Positions 15 to 29,041 of a stretch of DNA of 63,203 bases are shown piece by piece. The translations under genes and the position numbers were made by a program. The stretch lies in assembly GCA_028713895.1 (NCBI GenBank), contig JAQTNH010000001.1, forward strand, positions 93,847 to 157,049, read 5' to 3'. The DNA comes from Candidatus Nanoarchaeia archaeon. GTDB taxonomy: Archaea > Nanobdellota > Nanobdellia > CSSed11-243R1. The notes beneath the pieces were generated by a model. It was given only the letters and a program-made list of their open reading frames with translations, searched no databases and had not been told where the DNA came from. Each line of letters starts with the position of its first letter. Positions within the stretch are counted from its first letter, which is position 1.

Positions 15-2933
15 ATGGCAGATGTAGGCAGGAAACCGCTGATTCCATACAACTTTTTTGAGAAACACCGCAACATGCCGTATGAGTGGGCAAAAAGCGT
101 GCTTGAGAAAAAGTATTATGTTGACATAAGCCGCGAAACTTATTATCTATGTATGGCTAAGTATAATGTAATTAACGCAGGCAGAGGAAGGAAACCGCTT
201 GTTCCTGATGTTTATTTTGTGATGCACCATGATATTTCTGACCCTGAGGAGATGGCAAGAGTGCTTGCTTCAGAACACCACAAGGGCTGCGATGCTGCTT
301 ATGCACAAAAGCGCATACTTGAACTCAGGCTCACTGCGAAAAGAGCCAGACGCCCCTTACTTGTAGAAGACTCATACTTCCTTAAAAATAAGGGCATTAC
401 TGACCCAGAAAAAATGGCAGAAACAATAAAAGAGAAGTATGGCATTGACTGCAAGCCGTATTACGCAAAAAAAAGAATGGGCGTGCTTGGGATTAAAATT
501 GTCCGAGGGCAGGCAGCTGTGATGCAAAAAAGAGCAGAGCTTGTTCTTGAAGTCCTGTTAAAGGAGCCTTCTCTTAGCAATGCAAATCTTGCAGCTGCAA
601 TTGAAAAGGACTATGATGTCAGATTAGAACCCTGCCAGGTAAGCTACATAATAAAAAAGCTGGGCAAAGAGGGAAAGATTGACCTGTCAGAAATAAGAGA
701 GTCGCAAAGAAGCAGGGGACTGCAGATACCTAACAAATTCTTTGAGGAGAACCCGAACCTGGATTTTGAAGCTGCAGCCCCGATATTAAAGGAAAGATAT
801 GGCATAGATGAGTTAGAAAGTGGTTATTATGGCAGGGCGCGAAGAAAACTGATGGGGACAATACCTGGCATGAAGCCCCTGGTAGGACGCCGCAAGTCAA
901 AAATCCCAGATGCATTCTTTGTCAAATATCCCAATCTGCGCTTTAATGACGCTGAAAAGGTACTGAAAGATGAATACAGTGTTCCCAATGTAACAAAATT
1001 TTGTTATTACGGGCAAAGAGACAAATTGCGAAGTAAAATTCCTGCAATAACAAACCTGCATCCCACAACAGTAAAACCCAAGATACCTGAAGAATTCTTC
1101 AGAGAGAACCCGAACCTGGATTTTGATGATGCAGCGCCTTTGATAAAGGAGAAATACGGGATTAAAATTGAAAAGAGCGCATATCGTTTAAGAAGACGCA
1201 TGCTAAAAGGGAAGATACCCGGGATGATTGATATTAGGGGCTGTTCGAAACCGCGCATACCCAGGGAATTCTTTGAGAAGCATCCAAACCTTCGTTTTGA
1301 AGAAGCGGCAGGGATACTTGAAAACGAATACGGAATAAAAGGGATAACAAAGGGCTCTTATAAGGAAAGAAGAAAATACCTCAAACCAGACATCCCTGCA
1401 ATGAAAAATCTTAATACGATTATGATTCCAACTGAATTTTTCATCAAACATCCAAATGCCCTGTATGACGAAGCATTAAACCTGCTCAATGAGGAGTTAG
1501 GCATTGCAAAAATATCCCGAATGTCTTATTATAACAAAAGAAATGCCCTAAAAGGGACAGTGCCGGGGATTGGAGCTTTGGACCATAGAACTGAGCGAAA
1601 ATCGCTGATACCTGATGAATTCTTTTTAAAACATCCGAATTTATTATTTGAAGAAGCTGAAAAAGTACTGGAACAGGAGTATAATCTCTGTGGAATAACA
1701 AGGGGCTGCTATTACCAGCGAAGGAGAGTATTACGAAGTAAAATACCTACAATAACCGAGCTGCATCCAGCAAAAAAGAAACCGCTGATACCTGATGAGT
1801 TCTTCAGAGAGAACCCTAACCTGGATTTTGATGATGCAGCGCCTTTGATAAAGGAGAAATACGGCATAGGCAAGTTAGACAGGGGTCTTTATTACAGGGT
1901 GCGAAGAAAACTGATGGGAACAATACCTGGAATGAAACGGATTGGCGAGTACAAGCCAAAAATTCCGGAGAAATTCTTCATAGAACATCCAAACCTGACT
2001 TTTGAGGAAGCTGAAAAAATCCTGAACGATGAATATGGCATAACTATCGAAAAGCAGATTTACAAAAACACCAGGAGCTACATGAAGAGAAACATCCCTG
2101 CCATTAAAAATTTACACACAGTGCAGAAGGAAAATCGCATAGCTGGTTTAATGCTGGAAGATGAGGTTAATAATCGCATTCCAAGGGATTTCTTCAAAAA
2201 AACAAAGATACTTTCCGTCAAGGAAGTCCAGGCGCTTGCAAAAAAACGCTTTGACGCAGACCTGTCTATTGATGAAATCCTTGCCAAGCGGCGCTTTAAA
2301 AGATGCGATAGCAGAGAGGACATTCCTAAAGATTTCTTCAAGCGAACAAGGGAGCTGGAGATTGACGATATCCAGAAACTTGCAAAAATCAATTATAATG
2401 TGGAAATTTCCGAAGAATACATTCTTCAGCGCATAGACGAACTGGAAAAGGAAAAAGAAAAACGAAGAAGCAGAAATGCGCCGGCAACCGGAAGCAGCAG
2501 GGGTAGATCCAGCCAAAGTTCAGTAATGAACAGGGTTGTTGATTATAACTGGCTGCCAAATCCCAAGGACATGGCAATTGCAATAATGAAGACTGTTGGA
2601 AAAAAGGAAGGCATGAGCGAAGAAGTGGCAAGGGAAAAGTCTGAGTTCATACTAAATTTTTTCGGATATTATTACATAATGGTTGACAACACTCTTACGC
2701 CCGCTCAAAGAGATGTATTCTACATGTTTGAGGATGCAGGGCTGCTGACCGCTGACAGGGAATATATTACGCTCTCAAAGGGCAAGGAGTGGAGAATCAA
2801 TTATTGGATACTAAACGTAAAAAATATACAGAAAGCTGTCATGGAACAAGAAGAGGGAGAAAAAAAGGAAGCAGAGAAGCCTCTTGAAGAAAAGGTCTAT
2901 GAAGACTTGCCTGTTGAAATCTGGGAAAGATAG
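15..2933 (+). CDS. Giant tandem-repeat (helix-turn-helix-like) protein with C-terminal DUF6015-like domain
   Basis: 972 residues. An in-frame TGA at 9-11 fixes the ATG at 15 as the earliest ATG. Residues 1-165 hold three diverged modules and 166-235 a winged-helix-like segment. Residues 236-719 hold eight modules of about 56-73 residues. Each reads IP-x2-FF, PNL-x-F, a helix ending in EYGI or KYGI, a YY-x2-RR helix, then IP-G/A-M. Two weaker modules (720-820) follow. Residues about 838-930 (N-W-L-P ... N-Y-W-I-L) resemble the archaeal DUF6015 family as I remember it. The two-helix pattern with a variable basic second helix suggests tandem DNA- or RNA-binding HTH units; that is inference. Modules at residues 355-412 and 589-646 share nearly identical DNA, which implies recent duplication or conversion. 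Function unknown. Confidence 0.85.
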   Translation: MADVGRKPLIPYNFFEKHRNMPYEWAKSVLEKKYYVDISRETYYLCMAKYNVINAGRGRKPLVPDVYFVMHHDISDPEEMARVLASEHHKGCDAAYAQKRILELRLTAKRARRPLLVEDSYFLKNKGITDPEKMAETIKEKYGIDCKPYYAKKRMGVLGIKIVRGQAAVMQKRAELVLEVLLKEPSLSNANLAAAIEKDYDVRLEPCQVSYIIKKLGKEGKIDLSEIRESQRSRGLQIPNKFFEENPNLDFEAAAPILKERYGIDELESGYYGRARRKLMGTIPGMKPLVGRRKSKIPDAFFVKYPNLRFNDAEKVLKDEYSVPNVTKFCYYGQRDKLRSKIPAITNLHPTTVKPKIPEEFFRENPNLDFDDAAPLIKEKYGIKIEKSAYRLRRRMLKGKIPGMIDIRGCSKPRIPREFFEKHPNLRFEEAAGILENEYGIKGITKGSYKERRKYLKPDIPAMKNLNTIMIPTEFFIKHPNALYDEALNLLNEELGIAKISRMSYYNKRNALKGTVPGIGALDHRTERKSLIPDEFFLKHPNLLFEEAEKVLEQEYNLCGITRGCYYQRRRVLRSKIPTITELHPAKKKPLIPDEFFRENPNLDFDDAAPLIKEKYGIGKLDRGLYYRVRRKLMGTIPGMKRIGEYKPKIPEKFFIEHPNLTFEEAEKILNDEYGITIEKQIYKNTRSYMKRNIPAIKNLHTVQKENRIAGLMLEDEVNNRIPRDFFKKTKILSVKEVQALAKKRFDADLSIDEILAKRRFKRCDSREDIPKDFFKRTRELEIDDIQKLAKINYNVEISEEYILQRIDELEKEKEKRRSRNAPATGSSRGRSSQSSVMNRVVDYNWLPNPKDMAIAIMKTVGKKEGMSEEVAREKSEFILNFFGYYYIMVDNTLTPAQRDVFYMFEDAGLLTADREYITLSKGKEWRINYWILNVKNIQKAVMEQEEGEKKEAEKPLEEKVYEDLPVEIWER

Positions 2934-2994: not shown

Positions 2995-4554
2995 ATGAAA
3001 GAAGGATATAATGTCCCCAGAGGGAGGGGAAATAACCTAAGTTCTTATGAAATCACTGGTGAAGTTGAGACAATAATACAGCATGCTGTTGAAATAAACG
3101 GGCTAAAAGACATCAAATTTTATGTATGCCAGCCGGATACATATGACAGCCGGGTAATGGGGGCAGTGAAAAACAAATACAATTGTTTCCTGATTCATCC
3201 CAATGCCTTTGACATATTAGGCATCATAGTCAAGAAAAAGTGTGTTGATTTAGCATTGTTAAAGGATGAAATAGCCCCTTTTGTTAGCGGAGAGGCTAGC
3301 AGGGTTTTTGAAAAGACAATAGCCACTTTTCAGAGGATAGGCATCTGGGACAAAATCAAAAAGGACATCAGTGCAGTTGAGTTTGATGATTTCAAAAAAG
3401 AAGACGCTGGAAAATCATATCTTGAAAGGGTTATGGCTTATAATACAGGCAGGGTTCCAGCGAACGTTGCCCCCAGTTTTGAGGCGCGGAGATTTAATGC
3501 AGTTGAAGAGGGTGATTTCTGGGCTTTCCTGAGCTGCTGCGACAAAAACATAAAGGAAAACAACGTAAAACTAGATGACCTTGTTCTTGCGCTCCAGGAG
3601 AACAAGGGGTGGCAAAGAATCCTCAGCAGCGGTATACCCAAATCCGCTTCATTGAAGAACAAAAACTGGGAAATCGAAAATGAAAAAGCATACGTAGAAC
3701 GAATGGGCAAAAATGTTGCTGAACACGCATTATTTTTTGAAGATTTTCCTGACATTAGATTCAGCGGAAAATCAGCAGTAGAATGCGATTATCTTACCAA
3801 AGAAATACTCGATGCCGTTGAAAAACAGGGCATAACCATTGTCACAGAAGGAGTTTATGAGACCCTACAAAAGATGATTGAAACAAAGAGACTGGATTAT
3901 TCTGATGTGGGGGTAAAGAATAAACATTATCAAAAAACCATTAAGTTCTTGGACAAGATAGGGCTATTGAACAAGCTTCAGGAAAAATATGGTGCCAAGA
4001 CTGAACTTAAATCAGAACCTCCTGCGCATTCTCCAGATTCTCCTGGCACATGCCTGCTTGACGCAGGCCCGATAGCACAAGAGAAAGATGCTGTTCTTGC
4101 CGCTTATAATGCTGCGAAAGAAAATTTTACCAATAATCCCACAGACGAAAACAGAATGCAGTATTTCATAGCCTCACATGACATGGTGGCTAAAGTCTAC
4201 GGGCTGGTAAAAGAGATTGAAAAGAAAATCGGAACTAACCCGCCAAAAGAAAAGTATGATGTTAAAGAAAAAAGGAATCCTTTGTTAAACAGCCTTGAAG
4301 AACAGTTGAGCAAAGAAAAAGTTGGCATGGTTCTTGAGGTTCTGGATGCTATAAACGAGCATACCTCTGAAGGCTACAGATTACCAAAGGATATCCGCAG
4401 TTCTATGACAGACATGACAGCGCCCAACTTTAATCATGCCTGCAAGATTCTTGAGCAAGAAAAGGCAATAGACATAAAAGGGAACAGAAGAAACAAGATG
4501 GTAAAAATAAACCAGTATGGCATATCAGGTCTTTCTAGTTCAGAACAAAAATGA
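2995..4554 (+). CDS. Hypothetical protein, mostly helical
   Basis: 519 residues with no family I recognise. The sequence is soluble, charged and mainly helical. A Pro-rich linker near residue 340 separates an N-terminal region from a helical C-terminal part, and residues about 430-500 look like a winged-helix unit. An AT-rich promoter box (gatttaaaag, about 2964-2973) lies about 25 bases before the start region, so the message is probably nearly leaderless. The gene ends one base before eS27 on the opposite strand. Being next to the giant repeat protein on the same strand may be meaningful, but there is a separate promoter. Confidence 0.75.
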   Translation: MKEGYNVPRGRGNNLSSYEITGEVETIIQHAVEINGLKDIKFYVCQPDTYDSRVMGAVKNKYNCFLIHPNAFDILGIIVKKKCVDLALLKDEIAPFVSGEASRVFEKTIATFQRIGIWDKIKKDISAVEFDDFKKEDAGKSYLERVMAYNTGRVPANVAPSFEARRFNAVEEGDFWAFLSCCDKNIKENNVKLDDLVLALQENKGWQRILSSGIPKSASLKNKNWEIENEKAYVERMGKNVAEHALFFEDFPDIRFSGKSAVECDYLTKEILDAVEKQGITIVTEGVYETLQKMIETKRLDYSDVGVKNKHYQKTIKFLDKIGLLNKLQEKYGAKTELKSEPPAHSPDSPGTCLLDAGPIAQEKDAVLAAYNAAKENFTNNPTDENRMQYFIASHDMVAKVYGLVKEIEKKIGTNPPKEKYDVKEKRNPLLNSLEEQLSKEKVGMVLEVLDAINEHTSEGYRLPKDIRSSMTDMTAPNFNHACKILEQEKAIDIKGNRRNKMVKINQYGISGLSSSEQK

Positions 4555-4555
4555 T

Positions 4556-4744
4556 TTACTCAAGAACTTCTAATACGCGGCCCTTGAAATGCGTCTTTCC
4601 GCCTGTGGCTGCTGCGAGAACTGTGCCGCATACAAGGCATTTTACTTCAGAAGCTGCCTTGCCGAAGATTACCTGCTCATTCTTGCATTTTTTGCAGCGC
4701 ACTTTCACGAATTTGCTGTCTGGAGCCGGGAGTTGGACTTCCAT
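4556..4744 (-). CDS. rps27e: Small ribosomal subunit protein eS27
   Basis: 62 residues with the eS27 zinc ribbon: C-K-K-C near the front and C-L-V-C about 20 residues later, then the T-G-G-K motif. I chose the ATG at 4744, which gives the normal N-terminus (MEVQLPAP). The longer reading frame would overlap the eL44 stop. It is the last gene of the priS-GINS-eL44-eS27 string, one base after eL44. It is a structural component of the 30S subunit. Confidence 0.93.
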   Translation of the reverse strand: MEVQLPAPDSKFVKVRCKKCKNEQVIFGKAASEVKCLVCGTVLAAATGGKTHFKGRVLEVLE

Positions 4745-5752: not shown

Positions 5753-7027
5753 TCACTTCTTTTTTGCCGCTTTCATCCTGCGGAAGGGATAGACAACGGG
5801 GTTTTTGATGTTTGCGCAGAATGTGTCCGGCCTGCAGATGCCTATGTCTTTGTAGAAATTTTCGTTTGTACAGGCTGGAGGGAGGTACTTGTCCTTCAGC
5901 TTCCCGTGCCAGCCAAGCTGCCCGCGCACATAACCCTCGGCAAGGGGCTTCGGGTTCTTCTGGTTCCACTTGAGAACATCTGCTTCGATTGCTTCCCTGC
6001 CCCAGCCGCAGCTGCGCAGGAAATTTATCAGGATGAATAACGCCCGCTTGCGCCCCTCTTCCATGCCATTGTAAATGTTTTTTATGCAGGGCGGGAAGAA
6101 TTCTGCAGGAATCGCCTCTTTCGGCAGCTCGAACTCTTTTTTGATGATATCTTCGTTCTTTTCAAGCTGTTCCTTCATGTTCCAGTCAAAAGCCTCTATG
6201 AAGAGCTGGCGCGCCTCGTCCTTCTTGAATTTGTCAAGGTATCCGAGCTCTGTTGTAACATTCCTGGCATCTGCCATCTCTGGCTTGAAAGAGTCCAAAT
6301 CTTTTTTGCGGAGTGGGATTGAAATCTTCCAGGTTTTTTCATTGAAGACATACGGCATCCTCATGAGGTGCCTGCTTGAAATCGCGATTGTGTCTATCTC
6401 CAGGACTTTGTACGGGTCGAATTCCCCTTCTGCCACAAGCTCCTTGAACTGCTTTCCTGTGCGCCTGCAGATTTGCTTTATGTCCTCGAACTCAAGAATC
6501 TTGTCTGCAAGAGTCTGGCGTATCATCTGCTTGAGATAAGCTGCAATCATGCGCGCGCCTTCAGGAAACTGCAGGGCGGTCTGGGAGCCGTTTATCTCCC
6601 TGGGGAATGATTCAAATGGTATCCCTATATGGAACCCTGTGCCGCCTGAGAACTTTATTGAATAATTGCTGACTGAATGGAACTCAAGGGCATCGCAGAG
6701 AAGCTTTGCGCAGATTTTTGCGTATTCAACCTGCTTTGTGTCAATGTCAATTATGAAGTCCCAGCCTGTGCGGATGGTGTCAAGGTCCTTTTTGGTTTTT
6801 GCAGCTGCAAGGTTCATTGGATTTGACCAGCGCTCAAGAGAGGCATGGAACGAAGTCGCCCCTTTCTTTACAAGCTCGGCAATGTCTGCGTTATAGCTGA
6901 GCACATCAGGGCGCGCCCCAACCTTGTCATTGAAGCGGGCAACCACTTCGCGCTGCTTTGCAGCGGCAATAATCCTATCTTTTACGCTGTCGCTTGAGTA
7001 ATAGCGGATAATGTCTGAAAAAAGCAT
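5753..7027 (-). CDS. priS: Single-polypeptide DNA primase (PriS catalytic domain fused to PriL-type Fe-S domain)
   Basis: 424 residues. Residues 1 to about 290 are the archaeo-eukaryotic primase catalytic domain: D94-I-D96 metal ligands, S128-G-G-T-G-F-H134 nucleotide-binding motif, the third acidic residue near D212, then S-R-H-L-M-R-M-P-Y. Residues about 305-424 do not belong to ordinary PriS. They look like the PriL C-terminal Fe-S domain, with C314 (F-P-P-C), C386 (P-P-A-C), C398 and C404 and the N-P-V-V-Y ending. The PriL N-terminal domain is absent. Monomeric fused primases are known from Nanoarchaeum and other DPANN archaea. First gene before GINS; it makes RNA/DNA primers. Confidence 0.88.
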   Translation of the reverse strand: MLFSDIIRYYSSDSVKDRIIAAAKQREVVARFNDKVGARPDVLSYNADIAELVKKGATSFHASLERWSNPMNLAAAKTKKDLDTIRTGWDFIIDIDTKQVEYAKICAKLLCDALEFHSVSNYSIKFSGGTGFHIGIPFESFPREINGSQTALQFPEGARMIAAYLKQMIRQTLADKILEFEDIKQICRRTGKQFKELVAEGEFDPYKVLEIDTIAISSRHLMRMPYVFNEKTWKISIPLRKKDLDSFKPEMADARNVTTELGYLDKFKKDEARQLFIEAFDWNMKEQLEKNEDIIKKEFELPKEAIPAEFFPPCIKNIYNGMEEGRKRALFILINFLRSCGWGREAIEADVLKWNQKNPKPLAEGYVRGQLGWHGKLKDKYLPPACTNENFYKDIGICRPDTFCANIKNPVVYPFRRMKAAKKK

Positions 7028-19449: not shown

Positions 19450-20313
19450 TCAGTTTCCAGAACATCCATTTTTCCCGTTTTTTTCAGTATTTATTATCTG
19501 CGCTATTACTTGTTTCAAATCTTTTGGCTTTGGAATCTCTCTCTGATTAGCTTCGTAAACAGAGTTTCCATTGTCAACAACATCATTTGCCTTAGGCGCT
19601 TCTCCGGAAACAACTTCTGGAACTGGAGCCTCGTAAATCGGAACTTCATCCTGCACTTCATCTGCAGTCTTTTTTGGTTTTGGCTGCTCTTTGATTGTTG
19701 AGCAAATATCCTCAAGTTTTCTTTTGTAGTCTACATTTTCTTTCGCCAGCTGTATAGTATTCTTCTCGGATTCGTCCACCTGTCTGTTCAAAAGTTTAAT
19801 TTTCTCTTCATAACTTTGCTCCATGTCTGATTTTTCTTTTTTCAAAGCCCCGTAAGTTTTTGTTAGTTCGTTTACTCTGGCGTCAAGTTCAGCGTTTTTG
19901 TCCACCTGCTCTTTTTTCTTTATTTTTTTGATGTGTTTCCCGTTCTGGTATACTATTTCGGTTTCTGTCTCGCGTACAGGTTTGCTCAGCATAAGAGCAT
20001 TTTTTATTATCTGTGGACAATACTTCTCATAAAATTCAAAAAGTTTTATCTGAACACCAGACAGGGGACCAACATTATCGTCTGCAAGAACAGAATTTAT
20101 GAAATCATAAAACATGGCTACATCCTGTTTTTCTTTGTCGCCTTTATATTGTTCGCATATACCTTTAAGGTATGCCAGGTCATAAGTAGTCAGACTAGAA
20201 ATTGTCCTTTCTTCCTCTTCTGTTTTTTCTGGGAGCTTAGAATAAACTTTATGCATTTTAAGACCATTAGTTAATCCAGGCGCTTTTTTTCCAGCATCTT
20301 CTTCATTAGGCAT
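19450..20313 (-). CDS. Hypothetical coiled-coil protein
   Basis: 287 residues with no recognised family. Residues about 30-110 are a compact helical region (L-T-T-Y-D-L-A-Y-L-K). Residues about 135-205 are a strong charged coiled coil. Residues 210-260 are a Pro/Glu-rich disordered linker, and the tail ends N-G-C-S-G-N. Soluble. It lies between the ABC exporter and divergent fibrillarin; TTTATAA sequences on both sides of the gap could serve both genes. Confidence 0.7.
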   Translation of the reverse strand: MPNEEDAGKKAPGLTNGLKMHKVYSKLPEKTEEEERTISSLTTYDLAYLKGICEQYKGDKEKQDVAMFYDFINSVLADDNVGPLSGVQIKLFEFYEKYCPQIIKNALMLSKPVRETETEIVYQNGKHIKKIKKKEQVDKNAELDARVNELTKTYGALKKEKSDMEQSYEEKIKLLNRQVDESEKNTIQLAKENVDYKRKLEDICSTIKEQPKPKKTADEVQDEVPIYEAPVPEVVSGEAPKANDVVDNGNSVYEANQREIPKPKDLKQVIAQIINTEKNGKNGCSGN

Positions 20314-28273: not shown

Positions 28274-29041
28274 TCATGTGTTCTCTGACAGATTGTAACA
28301 TTCTTTTCCAAGTCTGCTGGATTTAACAAGAGAGCTGAGTTTTGCGGGGTCATTCACTGCCAAATATCCCCAGTAATTTATTTTTTCAGCCAAATCATCA
28401 AGCGAAGCACCCAGCTTTTTCTGCAGTTTTGACTGGGTATAATATGTTTTTTCAACAAATACAAGGGGATAATAAAATAAATGTTCCTGATTAAACTGGA
28501 AAATCCAGAATCCCTCCCCTGCCTTGCATCTGCCTTTTCGTAGCTCAAGCCTGTAATCAGCTGCAATACTTTTTTCATTTTGCATTGTTGCTATAGGCCC
28601 ACAATAACTTTGCATGCCTTCAAGATATTCTAAATCAGCTTCCAGTTTTGAATCATACGGCATCATAGCAGGAGTCTTAAACTTGTAGTTTGTTGTAAAC
28701 CCTTTTTTCCTGAGATAGTCTTCTGTAAGCAGGAATACTTGGTGAAGTTCATTGTATGGATGCAAATCTATCTTTCTGTCCAAAGCCTCTTCAAATTTTG
28801 ACGCTGCCTCAGCACCTGATTGCAGGGCCCTTTCATTAAGATAATCAGTAAGACCCGGAATTAAATCAGTAAAATAGAAGATGTAAAATCTGGTTGAGTG
28901 GCTCCTATATTTTTTTTCTTTAGCTTTTTTGAAAAGATGCATGCCCTCCTCATATTTCTGCTTGTCTGCTATGAGAGCTTTTGACAGAACCCATGCATTA
29001 AAATTATGTATGTTTAATGAATGACCTGTAATTGGTTTCAT
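28274..29041 (-). CDS. Hypothetical protein
   Basis: 255 residues, soluble, mixed helix and strand, with aromatic-rich stretches (F-Y-I-F-Y-F, H-L-F-Y-Y-P-L-V-F-V-E-K-T-Y-Y). No motif recognised. Convergent with the secretion ATPase, two bases apart. Its composition resembles other orphan proteins here (49.8 kb and 57.7 kb), but I could not show homology by eye. Confidence 0.65.
   Translation of the reverse strand: MKPITGHSLNIHNFNAWVLSKALIADKQKYEEGMHLFKKAKEKKYRSHSTRFYIFYFTDLIPGLTDYLNERALQSGAEAASKFEEALDRKIDLHPYNELHQVFLLTEDYLRKKGFTTNYKFKTPAMMPYDSKLEADLEYLEGMQSYCGPIATMQNEKSIAADYRLELRKGRCKAGEGFWIFQFNQEHLFYYPLVFVEKTYYTQSKLQKKLGASLDDLAEKINYWGYLAVNDPAKLSSLVKSSRLGKECYNLSENT

What the first reader, a model, noticed from the sequence alone, without database searches (positions are those of the whole stretch)
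720..2171. Eight tandem helix-turn-helix-like modules in one protein
Residues 236-719 repeat a unit of about 60 residues ending in a variable basic second helix (for example Y-Y-G-R-A-R-R-K-L, Y-Y-N-K-R-N-A-L). Regular spacing with variation concentrated near the presumed recognition helix is what a modular DNA- or RNA-reading protein would show, in principle like other one-module-per-site binders. Three N-terminal and two later diverged modules extend it. I know no family with this unit.
Basis: inference. Interest (0 to 1): 0.75.

Follow-up and report, generated by a model that had tools for sequence, protein, structure and literature searches.

The report
Orphan archaeal protein of thirteen helix modules
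A small archaeon carries one large protein built of thirteen copies of an otherwise unknown three-helix unit whose last helix is strongly basic and varies from copy to copy, so it looks like a string of separate DNA- or RNA-gripping modules, although binding itself has not been shown.

Summary
The repeat is real. Eight units of 56-61 residues fill aa 234-705 of a 972-aa ORF (15-2933, +). Every unit pair scores above the best of 2000 shuffled pairs. Three N-terminal and two C-terminal units are detected independently. AlphaFold2 predicts three helices per unit (pLDDT 86). Helix 3 carries 4.75 K/R against 0.25 D/E per unit. Its core (Y, R, L) is fixed while its exposed positions vary more than those of helix 2. 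A unit pair has lower pTM (0.48) than one unit (0.69), which points to beads on a string rather than a solenoid. Unit 10 is a mosaic of units 6 and 4 with its breakpoint in the helix 2-3 turn. HTH geometry is plausible but unproven: no Foldseek match is significant, and profiles match no HTH family. The unit was found in no other protein in the genome samples and collections searched. The protein also has a DUF6015 domain. Its gene and a second orphan gene form an opposite-strand cassette inserted between rps27e and aIF2alpha, where three relatives have about 85-145 bp. Best reading: an orphan modular nucleic-acid-binding protein, probably reading a long composite DNA site. Binding, specificity and any code are inference.

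The parts
15..2933 (+). 972-aa repeat protein
   Evidence: open frame with no internal stop; divergent from aIF2alpha, whose start lies about 82 bp upstream of window base 1
27..185 (+). unit 1 (aa 5-57), diverged
   Evidence: hhalign with core-unit profile, rank 1 of 322 segments; hmmsearch i-E 1e-11
186..347 (+). unit 2 (aa 58-111), strongly diverged
   Evidence: rank 5 of 322
348..506 (+). unit 3 (aa 112-164), strongly diverged
   Evidence: rank 3 of 322
507..713 (+). winged-HTH-like spacer (aa 165-233), not detectably a copy of the unit
   Evidence: weak Pfam HTH_33 and HTH_24 matches, E 0.12 and 0.19, below cut-off; rank 63 of 322 against the unit profile
714..890 (+). unit 4 (aa 234-292)
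   Evidence: alignment A1
891..1070 (+). unit 5 (aa 293-352)
   Evidence: alignment A1
1071..1244 (+). unit 6 (aa 353-410), similar to the source of unit 10's first half
   Evidence: alignment A1; 88% nt identity to the first half of unit 10
1245..1412 (+). unit 7 (aa 411-466)
   Evidence: alignment A1
1413..1595 (+). unit 8 (aa 467-527)
   Evidence: alignment A1
1596..1775 (+). unit 9 (aa 528-587); predicted helices at unit residues 7-12, 18-29, 36-47
   Evidence: AlphaFold2 models
1776..1949 (+). unit 10 (aa 588-645), mosaic: first half like unit 6, second half like unit 4, breakpoint near 1865 in the helix 2-3 turn
   Evidence: informative sites 19:4 then 5:29; 1 of 2000 permutations as strong
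1950..2129 (+). unit 11 (aa 646-705)
   Evidence: alignment A1
2166..2309 (+). unit 12 (aa 718-765), diverged
   Evidence: rank 4 of 322
2310..2459 (+). unit 13 (aa 766-815), diverged
   Evidence: rank 2 of 322
2610..2846 (+). DUF6015 domain (aa 866-944)
   Evidence: Pfam PF19479, E 2.1e-17, 64 bits against a cut-off of 27; homologues L002-L007
2995..4554 (+). 519-aa orphan partner gene, same strand, 61 bp downstream
   Evidence: no family match above cut-off; no relative in 141 class genomes
4556..4744 (-). rps27e, one edge of the insertion
   Evidence: Pfam PF01667, E 2e-19

Best explanation
A lineage-specific, modular nucleic-acid-binding protein. Each unit of about 60 residues is a small three-helix, HTH-like domain (short helix 1, acidic helix 2, basic helix 3) on a semi-flexible tail and linker (IPxI plus 4-10 residues). 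Helix 3 is the likely contact surface, and its exposed residues differ between units, so the array would grip a long composite DNA site, with neighbouring units along the same duplex. The array grew by duplicating blocks of units and by swapping unit halves at the helix 2-3 boundary. The C-terminal DUF6015 domain and the 519-aa partner gene would supply recruitment or effector function. Shown: repeats, predicted helices, charge and variation pattern, mosaicism, cassette insertion, absence of relatives in the samples searched. Inferred: binding, DNA rather than RNA, sequence specificity, and the role of DUF6015 and the partner.
For: Helix 3 holds 4.75 K+R and 0.25 D+E per unit, while helix 2 holds 1.25 and 3.75. 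The array pI is 9.6. Helix-3 core residues Y39, R43 and L46 are invariant or nearly so, and exposed positions 37, 38, 41, 42, 44 and 45 have entropy 2.0-2.5 bits against 1.4-1.8 for exposed helix-2 positions (p 0.002). Pooled nonsynonymous difference is 0.49 in turn plus helix 3 and 0.31 in the scaffold. AlphaFold2 gives three helices with pLDDT about 86; pTM is 0.69 for one unit and 0.48 for a pair. The unit 10 breakpoint falls in the helix 2-3 turn. The best BFVD leads include an HTH-integrase protein and a PadR regulator, though none is significant.
Against: No significant structural match to any HTH in PDB or BFVD. No profile match to PadR or HTH_33 above shuffled controls, although only 13 and 4 sequences could be used. 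The helix 2-3 connection is six residues. pS is near saturation, so there is no test of positive selection. No ligand, site or expression data. Only one genome has the array.
Confidence: 0.5

Rival explanations
1. The units bind nucleic acid without sequence reading: a basic multivalent DNA- or RNA-coating protein, such as a chromatin, rRNA or plasmid-type compaction factor, whose helix-3 variation is drift at exposed sites.
For: Basic array (pI 9.6). Exposed positions vary in any helix; pN in helix 3 is higher than in the scaffold but below pS, so drift under weaker constraint suffices.
Against: Helix-3 exposed positions vary more than helix-2 exposed positions, and a half-unit carrying helix 3 was exchanged as a block. 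Neither excludes this rival.
Confidence: 0.25
2. The array is a helical protein-protein interaction scaffold, with helix 3 a docking surface for acidic partners.
For: Three-helix units occur in many protein-binding domains; Foldseek gives no HTH match at significant level.
Against: Helix-3 charge is strongly one-sided; pair pTM argues against a rigid solenoid; no known repeat family matches.
Confidence: 0.18
3. The two genes are a decaying or selfish mobile-element or viral insertion, with the repeat protein derived from a multi-HTH transposase or viral regulator and no host function. This concerns origin and role, and overlaps with the binding mechanisms above.
For: Two orphan genes lie on the opposite strand inside a conserved operon; relatives G001, G004 and G005 have only about 85-145 bp there; GC is 40-41% against mostly 44-49% for neighbours.
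Against: Both frames are open over 972 and 519 codons; no match to phage, plasmid or IMG/VR sequences; no integrase in the cassette.
Confidence: 0.3

Closest known systems
Myb/SANT repeat proteins (multi-repeat, e.g. c-Myb, SNAPC4)
   Same: Tandem three-helix units of about 50-60 residues with a third recognition helix, several in one protein (from general knowledge).
   Different: Myb repeats carry regularly spaced Trp; the eight core units have no Trp at all. No sequence match. Thirteen units here.
TAL effectors and TALE-like repeats
   Same: Works like, in principle: repeats that differ in few positions and could each contact one stretch of DNA.
   Different: TALE repeats are 33-35 residues, two helices, rigid superhelix with variation at two loop residues (general knowledge); here 56-61 residues, three helices, apparently independent domains.
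Tandem-HTH transposase and paired-type DNA-binding domains (HTH_33, IS630, Mos1)
   Same: Helix 2 - longer turn - helix 3 pattern; Mos1 appears among non-significant Foldseek leads.
   Different: Normally two HTHs, with a transposase domain; no profile match to HTH_33, no transposase domain here.
DUF6015 archaeal proteins (PF19479)
   Same: The C-terminal domain at aa 866-944 is a member.
   Different: Relatives found are short proteins of about 150 aa or have DUF6015 fused to unrelated sequence; none has the array.

Membership tests
Helix-turn-helix domain (tri-helical) | three helices, with helix 3 following helix 2 after a short turn | tested here: met
   AlphaFold2 helices 7-12, 18-29, 36-47, pLDDT about 86; the connection is six residues, long for a classical HTH
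Helix-turn-helix domain (tri-helical) | spatial arrangement superposing on solved HTH domains | tested here: inconclusive
   best PDB TMq 0.42-0.46, all E above 5; Foldseek is weak on 45-residue domains and no control HTH could be run
PadR and HTH_33 families | sequence-profile similarity | tested here: not met
   hhalign scores within column-shuffled null; few sequences used (13 and 4)
Myb/SANT repeats | regularly spaced conserved Trp | tested here: not met
   no Trp in aa 234-705; no Pfam match
TALE, PUF, PPR or mTERF modular repeats | period of about 30-36 residues and family profile match | tested here: not met
   period 56-61; no Pfam match for any unit
C2H2 zinc-finger arrays | paired Cys and His per unit | tested here: not met
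   4 Cys and 8 His over eight units
DUF6015 | profile match over curated cut-off | tested here: met
   64.2 bits against 27
Nucleic-acid-binding proteins | binding to DNA or RNA | not testable with these tools
   needs purified protein

The most novel reading that the evidence does not exclude
A new modular DNA reader: independent basic three-helix units, each contacting a few base pairs through a swappable third helix, strung together to read a site of several tens of base pairs, evolving by exchange of recognition halves between units.
Probability: 0.2. Interest if true: 0.85.

Novelty: new variant of a known kind. Interest (0 to 1): 0.45.

Why it matters
If the units bind DNA independently, this would be a repeat scaffold unrelated in sequence to TALE, Myb or zinc fingers, with natural evidence that the presumed reading half can be exchanged as a block. 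It would also be an example of a large modular regulator arising as an orphan in a reduced archaeal genome. If it proves to be a non-specific binder or a protein scaffold, it is still a new repeat family but of modest interest.

Tried and rejected
(1) Relatives of the array: own genome, 280 class genomes, 371 phylum genomes and the whole six-genome order gave none; the single phylum hit (G399, E 3e-4) is a short RelE-like ORF and I take it as chance. (2) GTDB contigs scanned twice, IMG/VR three times, phages and plasmids by tblastn: none. (3) PDB by sequence or profile: only noise. (4) A weak own-genome hit (E 0.16) lies in a HerA-like ATPase and is chance. (5) A possible diverged unit in the 519-aa partner (aa 246-293): rank 6 of 322 but not separated from noise. 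(6) Positive selection on helix 3: pS is saturated, no claim. (7) phrog_9295 at E 4e-4 on the whole protein is repeat summation; per unit it is 0.02 in one unit of 13. (8) No tandem DNA repeat array in the window that could be an obvious target. (9) Literature searches found no description of such an array or of DUF6015.

Full report
Observation. The frame 15-2933 (+) encodes 972 aa. Aa 234-705 are eight units of 56-61 residues with consensus KPxIPxEFFxEHPNLxFEEAAxxLKEEYGIxxIxKGxYYxxRRxLKGxIPGMKxL. All 28 unit pairs score 85-194, while the highest of 2000 shuffled pairs scores 59. A profile of these eight units alone was compared with 322 segments from 28 proteins of the window. The five diverged units placed by eye (u1, u2, u3, u12, u13) took ranks 1-5. 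The layout is therefore 3 units, an HTH-like spacer (aa 165-233), 8 units, 2 units, a Ser/Arg-rich linker and DUF6015.

Unit anatomy. AlphaFold2 on alignments of the protein's own units gave helices at unit residues 7-12, 18-29 and 36-47 with mean pLDDT 85.6 (single unit, 13 rows) and 86.5 (pair, 7 rows). pTM falls from 0.69 for a unit to 0.48 for a pair, as expected if units do not pack in a fixed way; the predicted-error matrix was not available, so this is indirect. Helix 2 is acidic and helix 3 strongly basic (1.25 K+R and 3.75 D+E against 4.75 and 0.25 per unit). In helix 3, Y39 and R43 are invariant and L46 nearly so, while exposed positions carry the most variation of the folded part; the linkers vary as well.

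Evolution. Block duplications are visible in the DNA: 172 nt at 80% and 156 nt at 79% identity. Unit 10 is a mosaic. Up to about nt 1865 it follows unit 6 (88% identity over the first half), and after that it follows unit 4 (79%; 49% to unit 6). Informative sites split 19:4 and 5:29, reached by 1 of 2000 permutations. The breakpoint is at aa 617, between helix 2 and the turn, so the helix-3 half moved as a block. Synonymous differences between units are near saturation, so selection cannot be tested.

Fold. Foldseek found no significant match for the pair or the unit in PDB, nor for the unit in BFVD. Leads are below significance: LmrR and sigma70 region 4 in PDB; an HTH-integrase protein, a PadR regulator, a phage repressor and an HMG box in BFVD. 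Profile comparison with PadR (13 sequences), HTH_33 (4 sequences) and DUF6015 was within shuffled controls. HTH geometry is therefore compatible with the model but not established, and the unit is not a detectable member of any HTH family tested.

Context. Upstream on the minus strand lie aIF2alpha, a Nop10-like ORF and PAC2. Downstream on the minus strand lie S27e, L44e, Gins51 and a primase. The repeat gene and the 519-aa gene lie between S27e and aIF2alpha on the plus strand. In relatives G001, G005 and G004 the S27e-aIF2alpha gap is about 143, 85 and 93 bp; here it is about 4.6 kb. The stop codons of the 519-aa gene and rps27e are adjacent (4554 and 4556). GC is 41% and 40%, mostly below the neighbours. 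I read this as a two-gene insertion in this lineage; loss in the relatives is less likely because a more distant genome of the class also has the two operon genes adjacent.

Distribution. The unit was found in no other protein of its own genome, nor in 280 class genomes, 371 phylum genomes (samples overlap), or the other five genomes of the order. GTDB, IMG/VR, phage and plasmid searches found nothing. These pattern-based scans find close relatives only, so distant ones may exist. DUF6015 is rare but present in relatives, mostly as short proteins.

Mechanism. The charge, variation and half-unit exchange fit a multi-module nucleic-acid binder whose helix 3 is the contact surface. DNA, sequence-specific reading, and a site of several tens of base pairs are inferences from analogy with tandem HTH proteins. 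Rivals are a non-specific multivalent binder and a protein scaffold; a selfish origin is compatible with any of them.

Verdict. Real and, within the searches possible here, an undescribed repeat family. The modular-reader reading is attractive but rests on anatomy alone, and one genome only.

Noticed in passing
window 5756-7027 (-): Primase ORF of 424 aa matches the large-subunit Pfam profile just below cut-off and resembles a fused small-plus-large primase as known in some DPANN archaea.
   Followed up: no
L017:5528-8002 (-): PHP-type phosphoesterase-like protein interrupted by what looks like an intein with homing-endonuclease-like sequence (from reading the sequence).
   Followed up: no
L030:316-2868 (+): HerA-like ATPase, also apparently carrying an intein directly after the Walker-A-like GKRGEGK motif.
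   Followed up: no
L017:3710-5467 (-): 585-aa AAA ATPase (Pfam AAA, E 3e-6) without further assigned domains, near the operon.
   Followed up: partly
window 2995-4554 (+): Orphan 519-aa partner; aa 246-293 faintly resembles the repeat unit and the C-terminal 70 aa look winged-helix-like (MCM4_WHD E 0.056), neither significant.
   Followed up: partly
window 19450-20313 (-) and 28274-29041 (-): Two ORFs with markedly low GC (37%) and unusual codon use for this window.
   Followed up: no
L002:1477-1941 (-): A second, short DUF6015 protein in the same genome between a Trm1-like and a CCA-adding-enzyme-like gene; its tail NSTVYDGLSDEAWDR resembles the repeat protein's tail EEKVYEDLPVEIWER.
   Followed up: no
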